Below, in pieces: positions 1 to 57,767 of a DNA stretch of 64,000 bases. A program made the position numbers and the translations under genes. The stretch's first letter is position 1. Every line of letters starts with the position of its first letter. The stretch covers positions 7,072,187 through 7,136,186 of the forward strand of contig NW_025062475.1 in the NCBI RefSeq assembly GCF_000002995.4, read 5' to 3'. The notes under the pieces were generated by a model that was given only the letters and a program-made list of their open reading frames with translations, was not told the origin of the DNA and did not search any database. The stretch comes from Brugia malayi (lineage: Eukaryota > Nematoda > Chromadorea > Rhabditida > Onchocercidae).

Positions 1-1192
1 TTAGATTTTTTAGATTCATTTTTCACGCTTTTTTGTTATCGTAATTTAATGAAATCTACATGCTAATTTTTCGATTTGATCTTGTTACGATCCTTGTACT
101 GTAATTGAGTCTTTACAGTTTCTTGTGTACCCAAATGAACAACTGTTGTAATGTTTGTTGTAAATCATTCCCAGTTCTGAACACATATATAAACCATAGA
201 CTAACAAGCAGAAAAAAGGAGAAGAAAAAAACTGTTATGTCAAAAAAAAAAAAGAACAGATAAATAAGAAAAAACACTCTTTTTTTCTGGCTACTCTTTC
301 TATTGGTATTTTTTATTTTTAAAGCTTATTATATCAAAAAAGAAAGATTCAATAATCTGATTGCAGTTTCATAAACTAAGCATAACTTGTGCCAGTAATT
401 TTGCTTCCAAGTTAAAGGTAACACTATTGTTGCTATATCAGTAACAGTAGTAAGACATATCGGATGATGTATATTGTGCATTAATTGAACTGTCGTTAGT
501 TTTTGTTTGTCGTGAAAAGTTTGTCGTTAATCAGGAGAAATTCAGAAAATTGGATGGCTTACTCTATACAGTCACAAACTTTTGTGTTTTAGAATCAAAT
601 AAGTTGGCATCAGTTATGCTTAGCTTTATGATACCGCAATAAAATTACTGTATCTTCATTCTTATAAGACATAGAATAACGATTAATCTGAACAGTCAAA
701 CAAGGAAAAGAAGGAGAGAAATTTTTCGTGTTATCATTAGTCTTTTGGAAGAAAAGGAAATATGAATTGTTTATGGTCTAAAGAACTTTTTGTTTATAAT
801 ATTGCATTTATATATAAGAATTGAGTGTGTTTACAATAAAACATTATGATTAAACCTTAAAATATAAGAATTGTGACAAACTCAAATCAGTAGGTAAACA
901 TGGGATTATTAATTAGATAAAAATGACAAAGAAATCACATGAGAAATGAATCTATGATGAACCTAAGAATATCGCATGTTACAATAAAACATTATGATTA
1001 ATGTTTCGCGATATAAACTGCCTATTCTACAATCAAGATAAATCCTTTAGATTCCTGTTTGTTCCTGGTCCTTGACAAAACCTTTCAAGACAAAAAAAAT
1101 TCACGACACCGTGCTTGTATTGGATAACATGATGCACTATTATGAAGAAAAAAAATTAGCAGTGAAAACATAAATGTTTCCTTTTATTGCAG
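1..1192. other. AT-rich stretch, no confident gene
   Basis: No long reading frame or recognisable domain is seen. A possible 51-nt plus-strand exon (about 367-417) is bounded by an attgcag acceptor and a gtaaca donor, and would join in phase to the exon at 1193. A near-perfect direct repeat (acaataaaacattatgatta) occurs near 831 and 980. The stretch could be the last introns of a plus-strand gene that starts before the window. Confidence 0.4.
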
Positions 1193-1400
1193 TTATTTTG
1201 TCGCATACCCTTTTCTGAGAAAGTTAAGAGAACCATTATTCTCGCTCAGAACTTCCGTTCATTCTTTGAGAAAGTGAAATTCGACATTCGTTATCCCAAT
1301 AACCTCTATTACAAAAGGTACAAGATTTCTTATCTCACTACATTTAGGTCTTTAAATTTTTGGTTCTCGTTTTTTTTTTAATTTACTTGATTTCAGATAA
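1193..1400 (+). CDS. Possible 3' exons of an unrecognised gene
   Basis: A good acceptor (cttttattgcag) precedes an open stretch at 1193-1317. It encodes about 41 residues with a coding-like, basic composition (it opens LFCRIPFSEKVKR and ends NNLYYK). A gtacaa donor follows. The next acceptor (tttcag, ending at 1396) gives A plus TAA, which would complete an Arg codon and stop at once at 1400. The model is therefore the C-terminus of a protein whose upstream exons lie further left or outside the window. I do not recognise the family and the call rests only on splice signals and phase. Confidence 0.25.
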
Positions 1401-3197
1401 AGAAGAAACCTCTTCTCTAGAGCTATATGGAATCTAGTTTGATCGGTTTGACTTCTTTCCGTGTCTTTCTGTTCACTATTAAAGGCAACTTCTAATTATT
1501 CTATTATTTATATGAATTAATTCTTCCAGGAACTGTTGGTTGATTTACTAACCACAACCGTTGTTACTCTTTTTGTTAATGCACTTCATTTGAAATTTGA
1601 ACCGGCAATTTACTTTCTACAAGATGTTTACTTTTTTCTACAATTCACTTTCTAAAGGTGCAGTGTTGTAACTTTTAACAAGTATAGCGCCTTCTTTTAG
1701 ACAGGATATTAAGCAACTGGCTTGAAAATGCATAGCAACATCAAAGCTATTCCAAAAATTTCTTCAATATTTTCAGTTGCCATCAGATATCGGTAGTTGC
1801 ATTTGCGATAAATCTACTTCCCTGATTATGTATTGCCTGCATATTGATTTAGATGCTGAACTGCTAGCATACTTTAACTTCACGTCCTTCATTTAATAAA
1901 TTTAAAATACCTTCCTCTTCTCAGCTAACTCAGTTCATATTTGTCTTCGCTTTTCTTTGTCGGGCTCATAGTATTCTGAATATATTTCAGCCAGTTATTA
2001 TTCACTGTTTCGAAAATCCAATAAATTATTCAAGGCGCTCTAATTTACCTTTACCTTTTTTTCTGGCTATTTTCTTAGTAATTGTTGATTTCTGGTGCTA
2101 AATCCAATTCCTTTTCTACTTGATGAAAAAAACTTTCTAATCTTTTTTCTGTCGCGGATTTTAACATCGCAAAGCACTAAATAAATGTTAATAATGCTTA
2201 ACATAACAATCCATTGATGTCTTTTACAATTCAATTAACTTTTGATCTTATATCAATTCATATACTAGGAGCATCTATCATGTAATGTCTATTACAACTC
2301 ATTATAGTAGCCACTTGTCATAATGTCTAGACAACCCACCGTGCTTTCTTTTGTGATACCCATTGTAAAACCTCTTGTTAAAGTAACTTATTATCATGTC
2401 AAGACAATTTATCCTTTGTACAAAAATGTCTAATTATAAACCACTCCCACACCTTAACACATATAATGTAACATATAATTGCTATATAAGGGTTAGCTTG
2501 TTAAAAGATTTGAGTATATGTGTAATTTATTACCAAGAACTGACGATTCCAATTTCAATTGTTCTCTATCAACGTATTGCCCTATTACTTCTGCTAATAA
2601 AGAAATTTGGTATTTTTCGGTTACCTCACGTATTTACATTTACATCCAACAATCTCCCTGCGATCAAAAACCTCTTCCAAAATTAATTAAACGATCAAAT
2701 CTTCCACAACAAAAATTTGCTTCCACGACATTTTCCGTCTTTTTTATTCTGATTTTTTTAATATCGGTTGCTCACCCTTCATTAGAGTAATAGACGTGTT
2801 CTAGCTTATGGCATCAGAATTTGTCATGAAAGTTTCGTTTTTGTTTGATGAGAAATTTCTTTCGAATGTACGGAAAAGCAATTAAAAAAATGCAACTTAT
2901 TAAAAACTGTGCCATAATCCAATGTGATCTTCCGTTCTGTCCCTTGCAATAGGACTTGCCTATGCCATATTGGTGTATCAACATAGACCCTTCACAAATC
3001 TTCGTTCGCGAAACTATGATGTCCTTCATTTAAGACTCAAATTTCACAAAAGCTGTGAATGATTAAGAAAAACCAGATAATATAAAATGTAACGAAAAAT
3101 ATTTTTAGCAGAAACGTTTCCAAAAAATCATCCTGAGATTTGATACAATTCTCGTCGAATTTATAGGAAATGCGTAATAAACTGAAACTGATTTTAT
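1401..3197. other. Intergenic, nothing recognised
   Basis: AT-rich sequence with only short overlapping open frames on both strands, for example two out-of-frame plus ORFs between 2396 and 2790. None has splice context, motifs or composition that would support a gene. It lies downstream of the glomulin-like gene and includes its 3' flank. Confidence 0.4.
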
Positions 3198-3345
3198 TTC
3201 TCCAGAATCCAAAAAAAAATTTCAAAATTGATCAGAAATTTAGAACAAGTTTCAATATATAATCGATCAATTCTCCAGAATCCAAAAAAAAATTTCAAAA
3301 TTGATCAGAAATTTAGAACAAGTTTCAATATATAATCGATCAATT
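3198..3345. repeat. 73-bp tandem duplication
   Basis: Two head-to-tail copies of a 73-bp unit start at 3198 and 3271 and appear identical by eye (each opens ttctccagaatcc). They sit 15 bp beyond the stop codon of the glomulin-like gene, so they would fall in its 3' UTR or flank. The identity implies a recent duplication. Confidence 0.85.
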
Positions 3346-3359
3346 ACAAGATTCATCGG

Positions 3360-6164
3360 TTATAGCATGTGTGCACTATGTAGAAAAGTTTCAGCAAAAT
3401 TTAAAGTTTGTGAATACTGAAATTGGAGCAGTGGTAGTGACTGGATATTTTGTTGTCGACGGGTTTCCATTTCTAAACGCTCCATACTAACAGACAGTTG
3501 ATTGGCGGGCACCTCAAGGCTTCCATGATTTATCTGTTGTTGTTCGATTTTCACCAATTCTGTCCAATCTGATATTTGCGACTACAAACAAATTCGGATA
3601 ATTATTTCTAAAACAGTGGATATTTGATGATCAACAAATTAATATCGATAAGGAATAATTATCAGCAGCGAAATGACATTCAGAAACTGCTTACTAATGA
3701 GTAATTGAAAACCAATAAGTTGTTACAATGTTTTGTTCTCTGAATTTTATTAAGGAATTAATAAAACTATAGCAGCTTTCAAGTGGAAGCAAAAACAGTC
3801 CTAATTAATTTGAAACGAAAACTCTAAATGCTACGGATACTTAATATTCTAAATAGTCGCAAATAATCAACTCAGTAATATTGATAAAGAACCGCTTAAA
3901 ACTGGAAGTAACCTGAATAAAATCGGTTCTTTTCCTTCCATGAAGGACCAGTGTGATCAATACCTTATCATTAAAAAAAATTTTTAAAAAAATAAAAAAG
4001 CCTAGAAGTCTAAAAATGAAGCCAAGAATTAAATAAGATCCAACTTAATATCCTAAACCGAGAATGCTAACTTCATCGTAAAAACTTCGATAAAAGAATT
4101 TTTCAATAATCGGAAAATACCACAACACCTGTAGAGGTTGAAGAAAATGCTTATAAATATTTAATATCAATTCCGGATTCATTCTACGAAGCGCCAATTC
4201 CTGAGCAAATATGAAAACAGACAAATAGTACTGCAATCCATCACTGAGATATGAATAACGTATACTGACCATATCACCCCAGAAAAAACCAAGTTCTCTA
4301 CGAAACACCTCATACTTAAGCTTGGAACGAAACAAGTCAATAATCCATGCCAGAAGTTGTGCCTCGAATTTTAATCTGAAATAAAGCGACAGTTTTAAAA
4401 GTTATATTTCATGATTTCGGATGTTTATTTGCTTGCTTGGTTTTCAAATAAAACCGGCGCATCAATTGTGTGAATCACGTGCTGATCGCTCTTTTATGGT
4501 ATCAAATAAAAGCGGAATGCCAAAAATGTTCAACTGCAGCTTTCTCCAATCAGCTACAATGAAATGATTTACACTATCACATCGAAAAATAAAGAAATAA
4601 ATAAACAGGAATACCTATTCCTTCGTGTAACTCTGCAAAGTTGAAAAAAACGAAACTTACGATTTTTCATCATAAATGTTGATTTTGTGAAAATTTTTCC
4701 TCCTGAAAGGAAACAATGATAAGAATGATGCTTAAGAAATTAGAAATTTTCATCGAAAAATATACAAATGTAGTATTTTGAAATCTAATAAGAATTAAGA
4801 AACAAAAAAAAAAAAAAAAAAAAAACAAGAATGGTAATAGTTCTTATTTTCCTTAATTTACAATGTATGATAATTTCTTATAAAGTATGATGCATTATAT
4901 TTCTGGTTTGTGATAACTCACTGTATTTCGTCCTTTTGAATCATGCCGAACAACTTTCGGATGACAAGTACTTGTGCTACTGGTTCAAATTTCGACAAAA
5001 ATAGTTTGAAAGTATCCATGCATATCACCCGCACTGTACATAAGGTGTATTCTTCACAGCATATTAAGAAATTAGCGAGAAATTCCTGCAATCAGAAATA
5101 GCTGAACAAATGGAATTCGAAAGGATATTATCCAACTACCTTTTCTCAACGATATATTTGTGTCTCCCACCTCCCAAAATTAAGAATCAGATGTATCCGT
5201 GTATTTTTCAAGATCTTCGAGGCCTATACATAATTCTAAATCACTTTCAACATTGAAACTTATCAAGCTTTCGATTTGAAACTTATCAAATATATATATA
5301 TATATATATAAGTAAGCTCGTAGGAAATTTCTTGAACCATACTAAGAAGAACGTCCACTGGTTTCGTCCTATTGACTCATTTTCGACAGAAACCAAACAA
5401 TTTCGCAGCACTAGTACTACGTAACCAATGTTGAACATATTTGAAGTTGAAATATGCAGCGAATAGCAAAGTGGACCAACCGCAAGTTTCAGATAATATT
5501 CAGGTGAAAATACTTGTGGAAGTGGATAAAACTTTGATCTGAAAATCGACCTATATCTAGACTTATCTAAGACACAAAATTTGTTATTCTGACAGATCTC
5601 ATGTTTTTTATTTTCTTATTCTTACAGTTCTCACTTATTACAGTAACAGAGAAAAAGGAAAGTGTACAATTGAAATTAGTTATCAGAAGCAATACAGAGA
5701 TCTGGATCACTAAAGTTCCAGAGTTAAATTCGGCATGAAAGATAATAAAAACGATTATAAGATGACTGGTCATTTATTTTGAGTGTCACAATTTTTACAA
5801 AACACTTACTTCAAAGAATTAACTAAAATAAGTGTATTGAGTGGCAGTTGCCGGTTAGAAAATTTGTAAATTTCATCCAATTTCATAATAAATGCTTCCA
5901 TATAATGACTTTGGATATGAGTGCATGATAACACTTTATCGAACAGCTCATCCAGTAGTTCGTAATTTTTGCTCATTGATAAACTATTAAACAGGAATTA
6001 TCGAGCAAATGATATCATTAACAATTACTTTGCTAACAAAGAAATACCAAAATAGACTAAAATAAATGTAATAAAATAAAACAGTACTAAAATGATAAAA
6101 TATAAAACAATCTGTTCAATAATAATAACTGGTAAAGCTGTACGTGACCCAAAATCTTCGAGTT
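3360..6164 (-). CDS. Glomulin-like protein, 5' end not found
   Basis: Six minus-strand exons join in phase: 6029-6164, 5810-5983, 5343-5538, 4922-5085, 4129-4375 and 3360-3581 (TAA). They give about 378 residues, against about 590 in human glomulin. Matches from memory to glomulin, the HEAT-like protein that binds the RBX1 RING of cullin ligases, are YPLPQVFSPEYYL near the middle, an EFLANFL...LFLSKFEP helix pair, and the C-terminal WTELVKIE (human WTELGNIE). The last matters because the glomulin C-terminus contacts RBX1. The protein is hydrophobic and helix-rich, with no signal peptide. The N-terminal exon(s) are missing: a donor at about 6192 suggests a tiny exon, but the upstream sequence runs into the inverted-repeat block at 6691. 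The gene may be intact with a far-off first exon, or broken. Identification is by short motifs only. Confidence 0.5.
5019..5160. repeat. Source segment copied into both inverted arms
   Basis: About 140 bp covering the 3' splice site and first half of the glomulin-like exon 4922-5085, plus upstream intron, reappears with scattered changes at about 11120-11260 (same orientation) and about 8100-8240 (opposite orientation). Shared landmarks include tcttcacagcatatta and gctgaacaaatg. The exonic copies read EFLANFIICCEE, then hit a stop a few codons later, so they are dead copies. Confidence 0.75.
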
Positions 6165-6192
6165 CTGCAAAAGTAAGCGGTTGAAAACTTAC

Positions 6193-6690
6193 GTGAATTC
6201 TAAAAATTATTTAATATATATCTAGTGATTTCGTTTCCTCCAACCTCGATGTCCCAATCCTTAACGACAATGAACTGAAAGAATTTTTCTCATACAAACC
6301 AATGCCAAAGAGAAACTTAACTATTGGTTCGAATATTCTCACGGAAAAATGACTAGTTTCGAAAAAGAACCCAAGGAGGACATTCTTTCCTAAAAGATGT
6401 AGGTACAATAGTTCCCCATGAGGGAGAGATTGCGTTGGTCAATGAACCTATAAAAGAAATTAAATAGCCAGGATAAAGAAGGGATGATGGAGAAGCAAAA
6501 CTGTCTCAATAGAATTACGGACAAGGAAAAATTCTCAAAGACCAGTGAATATACGAAGGAATTCTTCACCAACAATGTTCGACAAATCAGTTCAGAGTGT
6601 CGATGAACAAAGAATTTGTTTCTCGGCGAAGTAGAAAAGATAAAAAGGTACTCAACCATCCTAGAAGCATTCAGATCATTCAAAAACTTG
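6193..6690 (+). other. Coding-like but broken sequence left of the arm
   Basis: On the plus strand, interrupted frames of coding-like composition occur at about 6228-6350 (for example LNDNELKEFFSYKPMP) and 6460-6690 (for example ITDKEKFSKTSEYTKEFF and EVEKIKRYSTILEAF), separated by stops and shifts. The minus strand also has a 97-codon open frame here (6390-6683). I cannot decide whether this is a decayed transposon on the plus strand or a 5' exon of the glomulin-like gene on the minus strand. The composition favours the plus-strand reading. Confidence 0.3.
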
Positions 6691-8409
6691 AAATCTCGTG
6701 AATTTCCAATTAATTTAAAAAATATATCAAATAAAATTGGATTAATCCATAATACTAAAAGTTGTCTTAATTAAACATTTAAAGAAATATAAAATTGTTT
6801 CAAAATACATTTCATGTAAGCAATCTCATTAATCCAACACTCATCCCGTTTTGGTTGAGCTTATCCGCTGTAGAACAAAGGGTACGCACATTGTTTAACA
6901 TGTCAACCAAATTTGATTGTAATATCGAAGTACTGTAAAAATTTCCTGATCTAATATTCATTCTTATAAGAAACTGATAATATTAAAACCCATCTTTTGC
7001 TATATAAAGAGAAACGATCATCTGATAGCTCTTTACTCATGCATAATCATGCGCTTGTTACAAGTCAATACCCATTATATAAGAATTGGAACTCTTTGTC
7101 TTGTCAATTTTCTGTGCCAGCAAGTTATGATTTTGGCTTCTCTCTCTCACTTATTTAATTTCTTTAAATTCCCCATTAATTTATTCATTTTTTATCTCAT
7201 ATTTGCAGACAAATACTACAAACTTATAAACATATTCTCGGTATAGATTGGTATCGTAGTTATTAGCGAATAAAATCATTATAATAAATCTTTCACTCAA
7301 TGCATTCGCCTTTACCAACTACAATAACAGTTTAGAAAGCTGTTGAGCATATGAAAGTCCAATTCGACTCTAAGCTCTAAGCTGCAAGGCTCAAAGACCA
7401 CAAATTTCACGATAAACACTTCATGTTTTCTTCGTTTACTGGCCCTCCTTTAGCTAAAGAAATCGGGATGCAGTTTCTTTTTGACGAGTGTAGTTCTTTT
7501 TTTTGAGGAATCAGCTGTTATTTTTTTTTTTTTTTTTTTTCATTACACCATTTTTCATTACTCGGAAAGGAAAAATCCTCTGATTAAATCCGGGAATTTT
7601 ATTGGTCCACGATATAAGACATGTTTAAGCTTTTCATCTTTTTAAAGTGAGCTTATGGATTATAAAAGATTCCTAATTTTGTTATGGTATTAGTACTTCG
7701 TAATGAGGTAAGTAATGAATAACATCATTCTTATTCATATCAGAAGACATTTCTTTAATTATGTTGATTTTGTAGCTGTTCCTGCATTCTAAGAAGCTAA
7801 GAAAAAATATCATACCTAAAAAGCTGAGAATCGATTCAGAGTTGATTTAATCAATCAAAATAATGATTAACTTTTGAGATTTTCTATGGACAAAAGACTA
7901 AATATATTGTTGTCCCTTAGTGGTATTTTGTTTAAATTGTTCTAATGCATTTTTCAGATGTTCGTTAACATAGTTACTGGATTCCAGATATTCGCCCTCA
8001 TTGCCAATTGCGTTATGACTTGATTACTCTGATGATGATCAAAGTATAGAGTATACGACACATTTTCCTTAACTATCATTTTCAATTTTTTTGTATTCAT
8101 ATAGTATATTGATGATAGGTATTGGGATGGTATTCTTTCGAATTGCATTTGTTCAGCTATTTTTGATTGTAGGAATTTCTCGCTAATTTCATAATATGCT
8201 GTGAAGAATGCACCTTATGTTAGGAATGCGAGTGATATGCGTGTGTAAAAACAAATTTAGAATTTCTTTCTTACTGCCCTGTTTCCTTGCGAAACAAAGT
8301 CGTTTTCCTTTCTTGATAGTTCACATCGCTGACTTCTTTGTCTTCGATACTGGTACATTCTCGAACCTGTGCTGATTCCGTTCTGTGTACGTGTACTGTG
8401 GGAGTCTTC
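6691..8409. repeat. Left arm of a 1.72-kb inverted repeat
   Basis: This segment is the reverse complement of 10949-12666 over its whole length, with very few differences (one base plus small length changes at homopolymers near 7500 and 7520-7540). The outer end is at aaatctcgtg (6691) and the inner end at gggagtcttc (8409). It carries identical 64- and 65-codon open frames to the other arm, a long poly-T and the captured glomulin-like fragment. No transposase, terminal inverted repeat or target-site duplication was recognised. Confidence 0.93.
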
Positions 8410-10948
8410 GTAAAATACTTTATTATTCAAACCTCAAACTTGAGTAATTAAACCACCTCGCAACCGAGCCATACCAGACAAGGAACTATAATGAATGGCT
8501 TTGTAAGGAAAAAATTGGAAGGGATTTTATGGATGCTAAGGTTACAAAGTAGATTAAAATCACTTACAACAATAGTCTTTGTTCACTACGTTATAGAATC
8601 GCCATTGTGGCGACACTCCCGACTCGAGAAAAATAGCAAACAAAATGACTGGACTTGTTATCAGTCTGCTCTTAGCTCTTTGGCATTGTTTTCCTTCCGC
8701 GGAATCGAGGACGGATGGATATCTTCATAATCTTCTAGTTCGATATTCGGGTCCACGACTTGGTATTATTTGTTTTGACTGATGCTCAGCTCTAAAGGGT
8801 AGAGGTGGTTCAATGGTCTTTTCTAAATGTTTCCACCGGACATTTTAAGTTAGACCGCTCGAATATTACCGGCTTGTACTATTAACTTGGTGATGCTCGC
8901 CAGAGGCCAACATCCTCTGGGTACTGCTCCTGTGTGCACCACGACAATCTCTCTCACTTATAGAATGCGTCTGCGCGTGTGTTCCCTTGTGCTCTCTTTG
9001 TTTGCGGTCTCGTAGTGTTTGAAGGTATTTGGTTTGCCACTTTTCCCAGAATTTATCTGCTATTATTGCATCTTCTTTCCAGTAGTTCAACAGGTAACCT
9101 CGATTATGCGAATCTTGGATGATTCTTCTCGTTAGTAGTGGAGACATTGCGTATCCTTGTGAGCTGAGAAAATCTATAGGTCGTAGTGGCTGCATATTCT
9201 CGTCATCAATTACAATCAAAGAACGAGAATTCATTATTGCTTCAATTTCTATCGCCACTTTATAACGTTGGCAGTTATGTAAAATACGAGATTTAGATAT
9301 TTTTAGATATTTCAAGGAAGAAGAAAATCTTCTTCCTTGAAATATCTAAATTTTGTCAAATTAATACTTGGACCAGCATGCAATGCGTCATTATGGAAGT
9401 CGAATATTAGCAATGATACTATGGGTGAATGTCTATCCAATAAAGCTTGATGGTTCTCGATGTTGCTCATGTTTTCCATGCGAGAAACATGTCGTATAAT
9501 CCCTGTTTTATCTGTTTGCGTAACGTGCTGATTATAGTTTGCTAGTAGTTGCTGGTCTTTCTGAATGACAAAATTTATTGCTTTCTGCCAATATTCGCAT
9601 GAAATGAGCTCTTTCTTCTTAAGCATTCTATCAATATCGCGATAAACTTAACTGACAGTACTGATTAGACTTTTCCAAGAACCAAATTTTTGTATGTCCA
9701 GCAATGTTGAAAGTGGATATGGTGTTCTAACTGTTTGCGCTGTTGTCATCATTATACTTTCTTGGTCCTCTTGAGCTTGTGTTTCATTATTATCCTTTGA
9801 TAAACTTTATATAGGAGGGGTTCAGGTTGGTATGCTTTCTCCATTTTATAGCCATGTTGGTCCATTTCACCACAGGCAGTTTTTAATTCTCCGGGAGACA
9901 TCCTCCTGGACAAGCTATCAGCTGGATTTTCCCTTATCGATACATGTTGAAAGGATACGTTCACTTGCCTGCATTCTTTTAAGCGGTTTTCTACGAATCT
10001 TGATTGTGTGCTAGACTGAATAGTCAACAATGGACTATTTGAGAGTCGCTCCACACCGTTACTGGTAGATTTTTCCTTTGAAGTTCCTTTCGAAGTTGCA
10101 ATTAGTATGGCTAATAGTTCTAACCTGGGAATAGTGATGGCCTTTAGTGATGCGAGACGTGTTTTAGCCAGCCATAATTCTGCAGTTTGACCGGGAATCA
10201 GCAACTATGCTACGACCCTATATGCTTTAGACGAAGCGTCTGCGAAGATGTGTATCGAGCTAGTTTCTTTTATTTTAATATGTCGCATGAGTGGGAATGT
10301 TTCCTGCGTCCATGTCTGGGAGCGTTTGTTCCATTCGGATAATCATTCAACGCTAAGAGGTTCGTCTCAAGATAGTTTATCTCGCCATAGTTCTTGGAGG
10401 AAGGTCTTAAATGATATGAGAATAAGAGAAATCCATCTTAATGGATCAAATAAGCTTATCACTACGGATAGGATGGTTCTCTTTGTTGTTGCTTTTGGTA
10501 ATTCTTTCAGTTCCAGAATTATTTGGTCCGTACTTGTGTTCCATGATATTCCTAACAATTTTACTGTTGTGGTTGGGACGAGATTTTCGTTGGGTAGTGA
10601 ATTGTTGAAATCTTCTTTGTTGATTTAAGTTGCCTTAGGTTCATTTTAATTGAAGCAAAGTACTGCTTCGTTAATTCGTATTTGTGATGAGCTTCTTTGA
10701 GATTTTGAGCTGTTAGTAGAATATTATCAACGTGCATATTTCATTCAAGCTCTCTAGCCAGAGAAGTGTTCATTTTTTGGAGAGCATATCGTATGACTGT
10801 TGCCAGGAGAAGCGGGCTACAGATCATACCAAATGATAATCGAGCGAATTGAAAAATTGCCAAGTTTGTAGTCGTCGGAGGACGATATATGTCCGTAAGC
10901 CAAAGGAATTTTGTAAATTTTGTCATTTATGTGCAAAGTTAATTGATT
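8410..10948 (-). mobile_element. Decayed BEL/Pao LTR-retrotransposon pol
   Basis: Read on the minus strand, the domains appear in BEL/Pao order. Reverse transcriptase is at 10948-10700 (FLWLTDIYRPP, FQFARLSFGMICSPLLL, active-site-like MHVDN). The connection is at 10560-10370 (LLGISWNTS, TKRTILS, LFDPL). RNase H is at 10260-9830 (FADASSKAY, LAKTRLA, IPRLELLA, RFVENRLKE, ENPADSLSR). The integrase zinc-binding region is at 9530-9350 (DKTGIIRH, LHAGPSINLTKFR). The integrase end and C-terminal domain are at 9300-8780 (IEAIMNSRSL, LRPIDFL, RPLNHLYPLE). Stops at about 10745, 10365 and 10208 and frame changes show it is dead. The catalytic core of the integrase is missing between 9350 and 9302, where a perfect palindrome lies. 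Both ends abut the inverted arms, and no LTRs were found. Confidence 0.9.
9302..9350. repeat. Perfect 23-bp-arm palindrome
   Basis: Arms 9302-9324 and 9328-9350 are exact reverse complements around a 3-base AAA centre. It falls at the point in the BEL/Pao pol where the integrase core has been lost, so it looks like the scar of a deletion or inversion. Confidence 0.95.
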
Positions 10949-12666
10949 GAAGACTCCCACAGTACACGTACACAGAACGGAATCAGCACAGGTTCGAGAA
11001 TGTACCAGTATCGAAGACAAAGAAGTCAGCGATGTGAACTATCAAGAAAGGAAAACGACTTTGTTTCGCAAGGAAACAGGGCAGTAAGAAAGAAATTCTA
11101 AATTTGTTTTTACACACGCATATCACTCGCATTCCTAACATAAGGTGCATTCTTCACAGCATATTATGAAATTAGCGAGAAATTCCTACAATCAAAAATA
11201 GCTGAACAAATGCAATTCGAAAGAATACCATCCCAATACCTATCATCAATATACTATATGAATACAAAAAAATTGAAAATGATAGTTAAGGAAAATGTGT
11301 CGTATACTCTATACTTTGATCATCATCAGAGTAATCAAGTCATAACGCAATTGGCAATGAGGGCGAATATCTGGAATCCAGTAACTATGTTAACGAACAT
11401 CTGAAAAATGCATTAGAACAATTTAAACAAAATACCACTAAGGGACAACAATATATTTAGTCTTTTGTCCATAGAAAATCTCAAAAGTTAATCATTATTT
11501 TGATTGATTAAATCAACTCTGAATCGATTCTCAGCTTTTTAGGTATGATATTTTTTCTTAGCTTCTTAGAATGCAGGAACAGCTACAAAATCAACATAAT
11601 TAAAGAAATGTCTTCTGATATGAATAAGAATGATGTTATTCATTACTTACCTCATTACGAAGTACTAATACCATAACAAAATTAGGAATCTTTTATAATC
11701 CATAAGCTCACTTTAAAAAGATGAAAAGCTTAAACATGTCTTATATCGTGGACCAATAAAATTCCCGGATTTAATCAGAGGATTTTTCCTTTCCGAGTAA
11801 TGAAAAATGGTGTAATGAAAAAAAAAAAAAAAAAAATAACAGCTGATTCCTCCAAAAAAAGAACTACACTCGTCAAAAAGAAACTGCATCCCGATTTCTT
11901 TAGCTAAAGGAGGGCCAGTAAACGAAGAAAACATGAAGTGTTTATCGTGAAATTTGTGGTCTTTGAGCCTTGCAGCTTAGAGCTTAGAGTCGAATTGGAC
12001 TTTCATATGCTCAACAGCTTTCTAAACTGTTATTGTAGTTGGTAAAGGCGAATGCATTGAGTGAAAGATTTATTATAATGATTTTATTCGCTAATAACTA
12101 CGATACCAATCTATACCGAGAATATGTTTATAAGTTTGTAGTATTTGTCTGCAAATATGAGATAAAAAATGAATAAATTAATGGGGAATTTAAAGAAATT
12201 AAATAAGTGAGAGAGAGAAGCCAAAATCATAACTTGCTGGCACAGAAAATTGACAAGACAAAGAGTTCCAATTCTTATATAATGGGTATTGACTTGTAAC
12301 AAGCGCATGATTATGCATGAGTAAAGAGCTATCAGATGATCGTTTCTCTTTATATAGCAAAAGATGGGTTTTAATATTATCAGTTTCTTATAAGAATGAA
12401 TATTAGATCAGGAAATTTTTACAGTACTTCGATATTACAATCAAATTTGGTTGACATGTTAAACAATGTGCGTACCCTTTGTTCTACAGCGGATAAGCTC
12501 AACCAAAACGGGATGAGTGTTGGATTAATGAGATTGCTTACATGAAATGTATTTTGAAACAATTTTATATTTCTTTAAATGTTTAATTAAGACAACTTTT
12601 AGTATTATGGATTAATCCAATTTTATTTGATATATTTTTTAAATTAATTGGAAATTCACGAGATTT
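10949..12666. repeat. Right arm of the 1.72-kb inverted repeat
   Basis: Reverse complement of 6691-8409. Its inner edge (10949) cuts into the reverse transcriptase of the minus-strand BEL/Pao pol at VFNQLTLH. Its outer edge (12666) abuts the reverse transcriptase of a second, plus-strand BEL/Pao pol. It contains the second dead copy of the glomulin-like exon at about 11120-11260. The 64-codon ORF at 11210-11404 that spans this segment is probably fortuitous. Confidence 0.93.
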
Positions 12667-13690
12667 ATTTCGAGCTTTCCGACAGTGTTACCATATCAAA
12701 AGAGTTCCTTTCGAGTGATCTCACCCCCCTTTTTATTGTCAACTACCTTAAACTATTAAATAGACATACATTAAGTCAAAATTACGCTGAAATAAGAAAA
12801 AAAATCTTTGCGTCAATAATATAATAGTATTGACTAAAGGAACTGAAGCACTTAGAAAATATCAATAAATGAAATCAATTTCTAATGAAGCTTCAATAAA
12901 TGTAAGAGAATTTTTATCGAACAATCAAGAATTCATTTGAAATTTTAGAAAAGAACAGAGTAAAAATAAGTCAAATTAAGAAAATTCTTGGAATTAACTG
13001 AGTTCATAAAGACAATAATTGTACAATTAAAACCATTGATTGGGAAAAAAATTAACGAAGAGATCCATTTTGCAATTCTTAGCCTCTCTGGAAAAGAAGT
13101 CTAGTATGATCCACTATGATTTCTTGTTCCTACCATGATACAATTTAAATTCTCTACAAAAATTATGGAAGAAGCTATCTCTTAGAATGAAAACATAAAA
13201 ATGGTAAATTATGAAATACACTCACAAATGAATGGCCAAATATCGTATAGGAGTTACTAATCTTTCCACCCTGACGCCTCAAGTGCAGCACATCTCCAAG
13301 ATCAAAGGAAAGAAACATTTTTTTTGGCTTTTACCAAATCTCGTTTTGTACCAACTAATTAAAGGTATGACAATACTTTTATTAAATTAAAGTAGCTGTC
13401 GATACTTATTGGAATAAGAACTACTCAATTTGTAATCAAACAACTAGAACCCGAAAATGTGCGAACAAATTTATGATTTTTCAATGTGCAGTACACTGAG
13501 GACAAAATTATTTCTGACTCTGTCAGCTTTTTGTACAAAATCGAGTTGAAGAAATAAGGAAAGCGATAATTTCGTTCCGTTATATTCCAAGTGAACATAA
13601 TCCAGTTGATGTAGCAACTAAGAAACTTTCACTTTGAAGATTAAAAAATTATAATTTGTGGTGTAAAGGACCAACATAGCTAAAGAAAGA
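12667..13690 (+). mobile_element. Second decayed BEL/Pao pol fragment
   Basis: Across shifting plus-strand frames the pol order is visible. Reverse transcriptase with KRVPF and PPFLLSTTL lies at about 12690-12755, then EALRKYQ and NEASINVREFLS (about 12850-12920). KILGINWVHKD and FLVPTMIQFK follow in the connection (12970-13150). RNase H has DASS, FTKSRFVPTN, GMTI and VLIGI, then FVQNRVEEIRKA and IPSEHNPVDVATK (13280-13630), ending near LWCKGPT at about 13670. There are many stops and frameshifts. Orientation is opposite to the pol between the arms, and the domain overlap shows it is a separate copy. Confidence 0.8.

Positions 13691-49575: not shown

Positions 49576-57767
<8,192 letters not shown>

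What the first reader, a model, noticed from the sequence alone, without database searches (positions are those of the whole stretch)
6691..12666. Large near-perfect inverted repeat (2 x 1.72 kb) around a retrotransposon fragment
Two arms of 1719 and 1718 bp are reverse complements with only a handful of differences, while the 2.54 kb between them is a heavily decayed BEL/Pao pol. The arms look much younger than what they enclose. BEL/Pao LTRs should be direct repeats, so this is not a normal element. It could be a foldback or long-TIR element, an inverted duplication by break repair or gene conversion, or an assembly artefact. Transcription across it would give a long hairpin RNA, a natural source of small RNAs in nematodes.
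Basis: partly seen in the sequence, partly recalled or inferred. Interest (0 to 1): 0.75.

Follow-up and report, generated by a model that had tools for sequence, protein, structure and literature searches.

The report
Flippable inverted duplication in filarial worm
A 1.7-kb stretch of chromosome 1 of the filarial worm Brugia malayi appears twice, back to back in opposite directions around a dead retrotransposon, and a second assembled contig carries the block the other way round, so it looks like a small DNA segment that can flip; such segments are known elsewhere, and this one shows no sign of a function.

Summary
The inverted repeat is real as assembled: 6691-8409 against the reverse complement of 10949-12666, 99.88% identical. 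The genome is Brugia malayi v4, chromosome 1 (contig sizes). A foldback or long-TIR element is not supported: the only four full-length arms returned are two here and two on unplaced contig C131, and each arm is 1553 bp of non-LTR DNA plus 166 bp of a BEL/Pao LTR. C131 carries the locus with block 6691-12666 reversed: flipping it in silico cuts substitutions against C131 from 1179 to 43, and the one arm substitution travels with the block. C131 also keeps 517 bp of pol that the window lost. Relatives suggest that the left inner and right outer junctions are old and the other two new. Best reading: recent inverted duplication by break repair, whose arms then recombined and flipped the middle. 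Allele versus unplaced paralogue is unresolved, because C131 ends at the arm edge; an assembly error is less likely but not excluded. Three more near-identical inverted repeats were found in regions picked for close inverted hits. New member of a known kind. Hairpin RNA was not testable.

The parts
6691..8409 (+). left arm of the inverted repeat (1719 bp)
   Evidence: self-alignment 99.884% to 10949-12666 reversed
10949..12666 (-). right arm of the inverted repeat (1718 bp)
   Evidence: self-alignment; full-length near-identical copies returned only here and on C131
8410..10948 (-). spacer: truncated, decayed BEL/Pao pol fragment, read on the minus strand
   Evidence: Pfam PF05380 on pieces 10367-10624 and 9752-10204; domain match with 3 stops
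8244..8615 (-). 3' LTR of the BEL/Pao fragment, about 100 bp shorter inside than in other copies; crosses the left inner arm edge
   Evidence: 25 of 43 matches of the arm start at arm 1545-1558 and run to the query end; spacer 45-206 or so matches many copies; layout in held loci. LTR edges are inferred from match ends
8433..8454 (-). 22-base SL1-like sequence inside the LTR, 1 mismatch to the SL1 printed in PMC7181701
   Evidence: association of SL1 with PAO elements is published (PMC7181701 section 7)
9259..9262 (.). scar of a 517-bp deletion with 4-bp microhomology; C131 (L009:2571-3087) keeps the 517 bp
   Evidence: the C131 frame across the edge matches other pol frames of the genome without a break
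8409..8410 (.). junction J2, left inner: old (inside a continuous LTR)
   Evidence: arm tail and spacer head side by side in 17 of 18 held loci, some of which are near-copies of each other
12666..12667 (.). junction J4, right outer: probably old
   Evidence: of 10 held copies of the outer repeat, 6 reach the arm edge; 4 of these 6 match the right flank (p at most 0.0045), 0 of 6 match the left flank (best p 0.07)
6690..6691 (.). junction J1, left outer: probably new
   Evidence: left flank not matched by the outer-repeat copies; J1 is also on C131 at 6500/6501
10948..10949 (.). junction J3, right inner: new (pol interior joined to LTR interior)
   Evidence: also on C131 at 4780/4781; the pol side of it is covered by no other match
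2890..6206 (+). left flank, itself a near-identical segmental duplicate of chr1:7030014-7033263
   Evidence: 99.2% over 383 columns and 99.7% over 2943 columns, 3 substitutions in all

Best explanation
A recent inverted duplication that has become a small flip-flop segment. A 1.7-kb piece spanning the end of a dead BEL/Pao element and its neighbouring DNA was copied in reverse to the other side of the pol remnant, most simply by templated repair of a break or stalled fork. The two near-identical arms then recombined with each other and inverted the 2.5-kb middle. The chromosome sequence has one orientation and contig C131 the other. Shown: the inverted repeat, the reversed block on C131, the spacer deletion, and the inner arm edge inside a continuous LTR. 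Inferred: that the copy was made by repair, that the flip came from arm-to-arm recombination, and that both orientations segregate as alleles in the sequenced worms. I see no sign of a function; the locus most likely does nothing for the worm.
For: Arms 99.88% identical. Full-length arms were returned only for this locus and C131. C131 read in reverse is left flank, arm, reversed spacer, arm; flipping 6691-12666 in silico lowers substitutions against C131 from 1179 to 43. The single arm substitution (arm position 814) stays with its side of the spacer in both contigs, as a flip of the whole block predicts. J2 and J4 look old, J1 and J3 new: in the C131 orientation the two old junctions would sit on one arm, and C131 also keeps the undeleted spacer. 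C131 differs by the 517-bp indel and by 18- and 29-column gaps in the left flank, so it is not just a copy of the same consensus. PacBio subreads of N50 8,771 bp can anchor one arm on both sides (PMC7291094).
Against: C131 stops exactly at the arm's outer edge (C131:1), so its junction to the right flank is not seen; the flip rests on three of four junctions. No second near-identical copy of the right flank was returned. Near-identical paralogues exist close by, so C131 could be a paralogue. The part of C131 that matches window 869-5257 is noisy (97.9%, 7 substitutions, 70 gap openings). In the left flank it is C131, not the window, that departs from the copy at 7.03 Mb, so C131 is not the less changed form everywhere. 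In the yeast analogue no flip was seen in about 53,800 mitoses and 950 meioses (PMC9731477), and in human Y palindrome P6 inversions were rare (3 against 56 conversions, PMC3723533), so flips need not be frequent. I had no reads or depth. One substitution between the arms cannot separate recent duplication from gene conversion. J4 being old rests on short extensions in 4 of 6 copies.
Confidence: 0.6

Rival explanations
1. One-step staggered-break inversion: paired breaks 1.7 kb apart at one end were filled in while the pol piece inverted, giving the window order directly; C131 is a later re-inversion.
For: An old inner junction on one side and an old outer junction on the other is what this model gives. 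Model described in PMC7584159 (passages).
Against: Needs a long staggered overhang; C131, which would then be the doubly changed form, keeps the undeleted spacer, though that does not exclude it.
Confidence: 0.2
2. C131 is not an allele but a second, unplaced copy of the region (for instance on the poorly assembled Y), so the two orientations are fixed in two places.
For: Near-identical segmental duplication occurs here: the left flank itself has a copy 45 kb away with 3 substitutions.
Against: C131 also matches window 6207-6690 and 869-2889, into which the copy at 7.03 Mb does not continue; no third place was returned.
Confidence: 0.2
3. Assembly error: the true locus has one orientation only (or one arm), and C131 or the chromosome was joined wrongly at the arms.
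For: Contig end exactly at the arm edge; the contigs were scaffolded and edited by hand with older data (PMC7181701 section 17).
Against: Subreads (N50 8,771 bp) exceed an arm by far; both contigs have both arms joined to spacer or flank; the two contigs differ by indels of 517, 29 and 18 columns; no N in the window.
Confidence: 0.15
4. Foldback or long-terminal-inverted-repeat transposon.
For: Long arms around a retroelement piece.
Against: Whole arm not dispersed (4 full-length copies returned); inner end inside an LTR; no target-site duplication by eye.
Confidence: 0.02
5. A natural hairpin locus: read-through transcription gives double-stranded RNA and small RNAs against this BEL family.
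For: Geometry only; part of the LTR lies in the arms.
Against: No RNA data at hand; 1553 of 1719 bp of the arm are not LTR; the listing (10 of 33 papers shown) has no such report by title or start of abstract.
Confidence: 0.05

Closest known systems
Saccharomyces chromosome XIV flip/flop region (PMC9731477; abstract and section 9 read)
   Same: Two orientations of a segment between near-identical inverted repeats, explained by arm homogenisation and re-inversion
   Different: 24-kb segment with 15 genes and 4-kb repeats, shown in many strains; here 2.5 kb of dead retroelement, two contigs only
Drosophila subobscura IR1/IR2 at the O7 distal breakpoint (PMC7584159; passages read)
   Same: About 1.1-kb highly identical inverted repeats around a short spacer that segregates for a microinversion
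   Different: Spacer 250-407 nt; established by several assembled lines
Staggered-break inversions with inverted duplications at the ends (model as told in PMC7584159)
   Same: Same alternation of old and new junctions
   Different: The other orientation also appears in the assembly here
Human Y palindrome P6 (PMC3723533; passages read)
   Same: Inverted arms kept alike, with rare arm-to-arm inversions
   Different: Arms there are far longer, and conversion and inversion were shown on a phylogeny
B. malayi PAO elements with SL1 (PMC7181701; sections 6 part 1, 7, 12, 14, 17 and 24 read)
   Same: Spacer and arm tail are a relic of this kind, SL1-like 22-mer included
   Different: Truncated, decayed and rearranged

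Membership tests
Inverted-repeat-mediated (flip-flop) inversion polymorphism | near-identical inverted repeats flank the segment | tested here: met
Inverted-repeat-mediated (flip-flop) inversion polymorphism | both orientations exist with the same two flanks | tested here: inconclusive
   opposite orientation with the left flank on C131; the right flank is not on C131
Inverted-repeat-mediated (flip-flop) inversion polymorphism | orientations segregate as alleles | not testable with these tools
   no reads or depth at hand
Staggered-break inversion | duplicated sequence at both ends in inverted order, old and new junctions alternating | tested here: met
   for J2; for J4, with support from only 4 of 6 copies
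Staggered-break inversion | ancestral state without the duplication in a relative | not testable with these tools
   the genome tool states that no relatives are held
Foldback / long-TIR element | dispersed copies with the same ends | tested here: not met
   (40 of 236 candidates scored)
Foldback / long-TIR element | target-site duplication | tested here: not met
   flanks printed share no direct repeat at the edges, by eye
BEL/Pao retrotransposon (spacer) | Pao-type pol domains | tested here: met
BEL/Pao retrotransposon (spacer) | two direct LTRs around an open pol | tested here: not met
   no direct LTR pair in the window self-alignment; pol ends at 10948 and is broken by stops and a deletion

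The most novel reading that the evidence does not exclude
B. malayi carries a set of young, near-identical inverted repeats that act as active inversion switches; this locus is one caught in both orientations within one laboratory population.
Probability: 0.25. Interest if true: 0.5.

Novelty: new member of a known kind. Interest (0 to 1): 0.33.

Why it matters
If both orientations segregate, this is a simple marker for inversion by inverted repeats in a filarial worm, testable with existing PacBio reads. It also warns that short inversions and near-identical inverted duplications in this assembly may vary between haplotypes. No function is indicated.

Tried and rejected
Foldback/TIR element: not supported on copy number, inner edge and lack of a target duplication. 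C131's extra 517 bp as an insertion: rejected, because the frame across the edge matches other pol frames without a break. Against this piece Pfam gave nothing near a cut-off and the protein database nothing at E 0.01; at DNA level only C131 covers it among the 7 matches; and the relative L036, 84% alike up to that edge, does not continue into it, which I explain by a break in L036 but did not test. Rfam: 0 matches in the window. Nucleotide diversity of the laboratory strain: passages of PMC8575316 gave ratios but no absolute value that I used. Papers: the searches (10 of 10 listed; 8 of 8 listed) show nothing that by title or start of abstract describes this locus or such repeats in Brugia; the library holds open-licence papers only, and supplementary files could not be read.

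Full report
What is there. The window is contig C135:7072187-7136186 of an 86.8-Mb assembly of 139 contigs. The lengths of its five largest contigs seen here (24,943,668; 14,701,151; 14,214,749; 13,951,302; 13,467,244) equal chromosomes X, 1, 2, 3 and 4 of Brugia malayi in Table 1 of PMC7181701, so the window lies on B. malayi v4 chromosome 1. The spacer is a broken BEL/Pao pol on the minus strand.

The arms are not the borders of an element. A genome search with arm bases 1-1710 returned 43 matches (40 of 236 candidates scored, so lower bounds): 4 full arms (two here, two on C131); 27 matches of 134-166 bases at the arm's inner end, 25 of which start at arm 1545-1558 and run to the query end; and 12 pieces of an older repeat in the outer part, 68-83% identical. 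The inner end is the end of a BEL/Pao LTR that goes on into the spacer: in 17 of 18 held loci tested, arm tail and spacer head lie side by side; the one exception, L041, lacks the tail. These loci were fetched because they match, and some are near-copies of each other. So the left inner junction (J2) is old, and the right inner junction (J3), pol interior against LTR interior, is new. On the outside, 10 held copies of the outer repeat were compared; 6 reach the arm edge, 4 of these continue like the right flank (p at most 0.0045 against 2000 random window pieces), one is a tie (L019) and one weak (L007, p 0.17); none continues like the left flank. So the right outer junction (J4) is probably old and the left outer one (J1) new.

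The reversed block. Unplaced contig C131 (12,279 bp) begins exactly at the arm's outer edge, runs through arm, spacer and arm, and then on into the window's left flank in reverse, down to window base 869. Read in reverse it is left flank, arm, reversed spacer, arm. Aligned with the window as it stands there are 1179 substitutions; with 6691-12666 flipped, 43. Those 43 were not sorted one by one; by BLAST the three pieces that cover arms, spacer and near left flank show 0, 0 and 1 substitution, and the far part of C131 is noisy (7 substitutions and 70 gap openings in 4435 columns). The four arms differ by one substitution, at arm position 814, besides six single-base gap columns; T goes with the LTR side and G with the pol side in both contigs, as expected if the whole block turned.

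Differences between the two forms. C131 has 517 bp more in the spacer, with 4 bases shared at the edges. The C131 frame that crosses one edge (153 aa, of which residues 1-29 are also in the window) gave 104 match rows in the genome, C131 itself and the window's own remnant included; the 20 best other rows run from residue 18 or 19 to 120, at 44-52% identity, and several lie in the same open frames as Pao-peptidase matches. Hence the window lost 517 bp, probably through the 4-base microhomology. Against this, relative L036 (84% alike) stops matching at that very edge. In the left flank C131 lacks 18 and 29 columns that both the window and the copy at 7.03 Mb have, so there C131 is the changed one.

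How it probably arose. With the middle in the C131 orientation both old junctions would sit on one arm. The simplest history is: a BEL relic with flanking DNA; an inverted copy of 1.7 kb placed on the far side of the pol remnant (templated repair; inferred); then a flip by recombination between the arms (inferred), giving the window form. A staggered-break inversion gives the window form in one step and needs the flip afterwards (model in PMC7584159, passages). Both need one flip. The near-identity of the arms may reflect youth or conversion; one difference cannot tell. The left flank (2890-6206) is itself a near-identical duplicate of a stretch 45 kb upstream.

Is it an artefact? PacBio subreads had N50 8,771 and mean 5,930 bp (PMC7291094, whole text), against a 1.72-kb arm. 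Both contigs contain both arms. The exact contig end at the arm edge is what one would expect where two orders meet (inference), but it also leaves J4 unseen on C131. I cannot exclude a wrong join or a paralogue.

Context. Three other near-identical inverted repeats were aligned: chrX 1,255,627-1,261,536 (arms 2.83 kb, 99.7%, spacer about 250 bp), chr2 7,500,620-7,509,500 (arms at least 3.64 kb, 99.9%, cut by the fetch, spacer about 1.6 kb), chr1 13,954,006-13,957,012 (arms 1.42 kb, 99.3%, spacer 169 bp). The sample is biased: these regions were chosen because hits came as close inverted pairs. A fourth chosen the same way (L045) has only about 450-bp arms at 94%, 6.4 kb apart, and L037 holds a 380-bp pair at 98.4%, cut by the fetch. 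None of these was checked for orientation variants, apart from searches that showed no haplotype contig for the chrX and chr2 repeats among the matches listed (the list was cut).

Known kinds. Flip-flop segments between inverted repeats are known in yeast (PMC9731477, abstract and one section), Drosophila (PMC7584159, passages) and human Y (PMC3723533, passages). In yeast the orientation was stable in the laboratory and in P6 inversions were rare, so the two forms here may be old alleles rather than frequent flips. This is a new example if confirmed. No function is indicated.

Noticed in passing
window 2890-6206: Near-identical segmental duplicate of chr1:7030014-7033263 (3 substitutions in about 3.3 kb); beyond 6206 the other copy continues into what looks by eye like coding sequence, so the window copy may hold a truncated gene piece.
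   Followed up: partly
L040:1128-7037 (chrX 1.256-1.262 Mb): Inverted repeat, 2.83-kb arms 99.7% identical, about 250-bp spacer, with SL1-bearing LTR pieces in the arms.
   Followed up: partly
L041 (chr2 7.5006-7.5095 Mb) and chr2 7.2479-7.2537 Mb: Inverted repeat with arms of at least 3.64 kb, 99.9%; a second, partly truncated copy about 250 kb away.
   Followed up: partly
L055:107-3113 (chr1 13.954-13.957 Mb): Inverted repeat, 1.42-kb arms 99.3% identical, 169-bp spacer.
   Followed up: partly
chr2 975,910 / 980,267; chrX 2,836,737 / 2,839,213; chrX 7.53 / 7.635 Mb: Inverted pairs of Pao peptidase matches with equal scores, suggesting more near-identical inverted duplications, one pair about 100 kb apart on X.
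   Followed up: no
window 8433-8454, minus strand: SL1-like 22-mer with one mismatch inside the LTR relic; other copies have about 100 bp more right next to it.
   Followed up: partly
window 53588-54816: Long tandem array of a short unit of about 12-13 bases, seen in the self-alignment.
   Followed up: no
window 3198-3345: Perfect 75-base tandem duplication; the duplicate copy at chr1 7.03 Mb seems to have it once.
   Followed up: no
window 9302-9350: Short near-palindrome inside the pol remnant.
   Followed up: no
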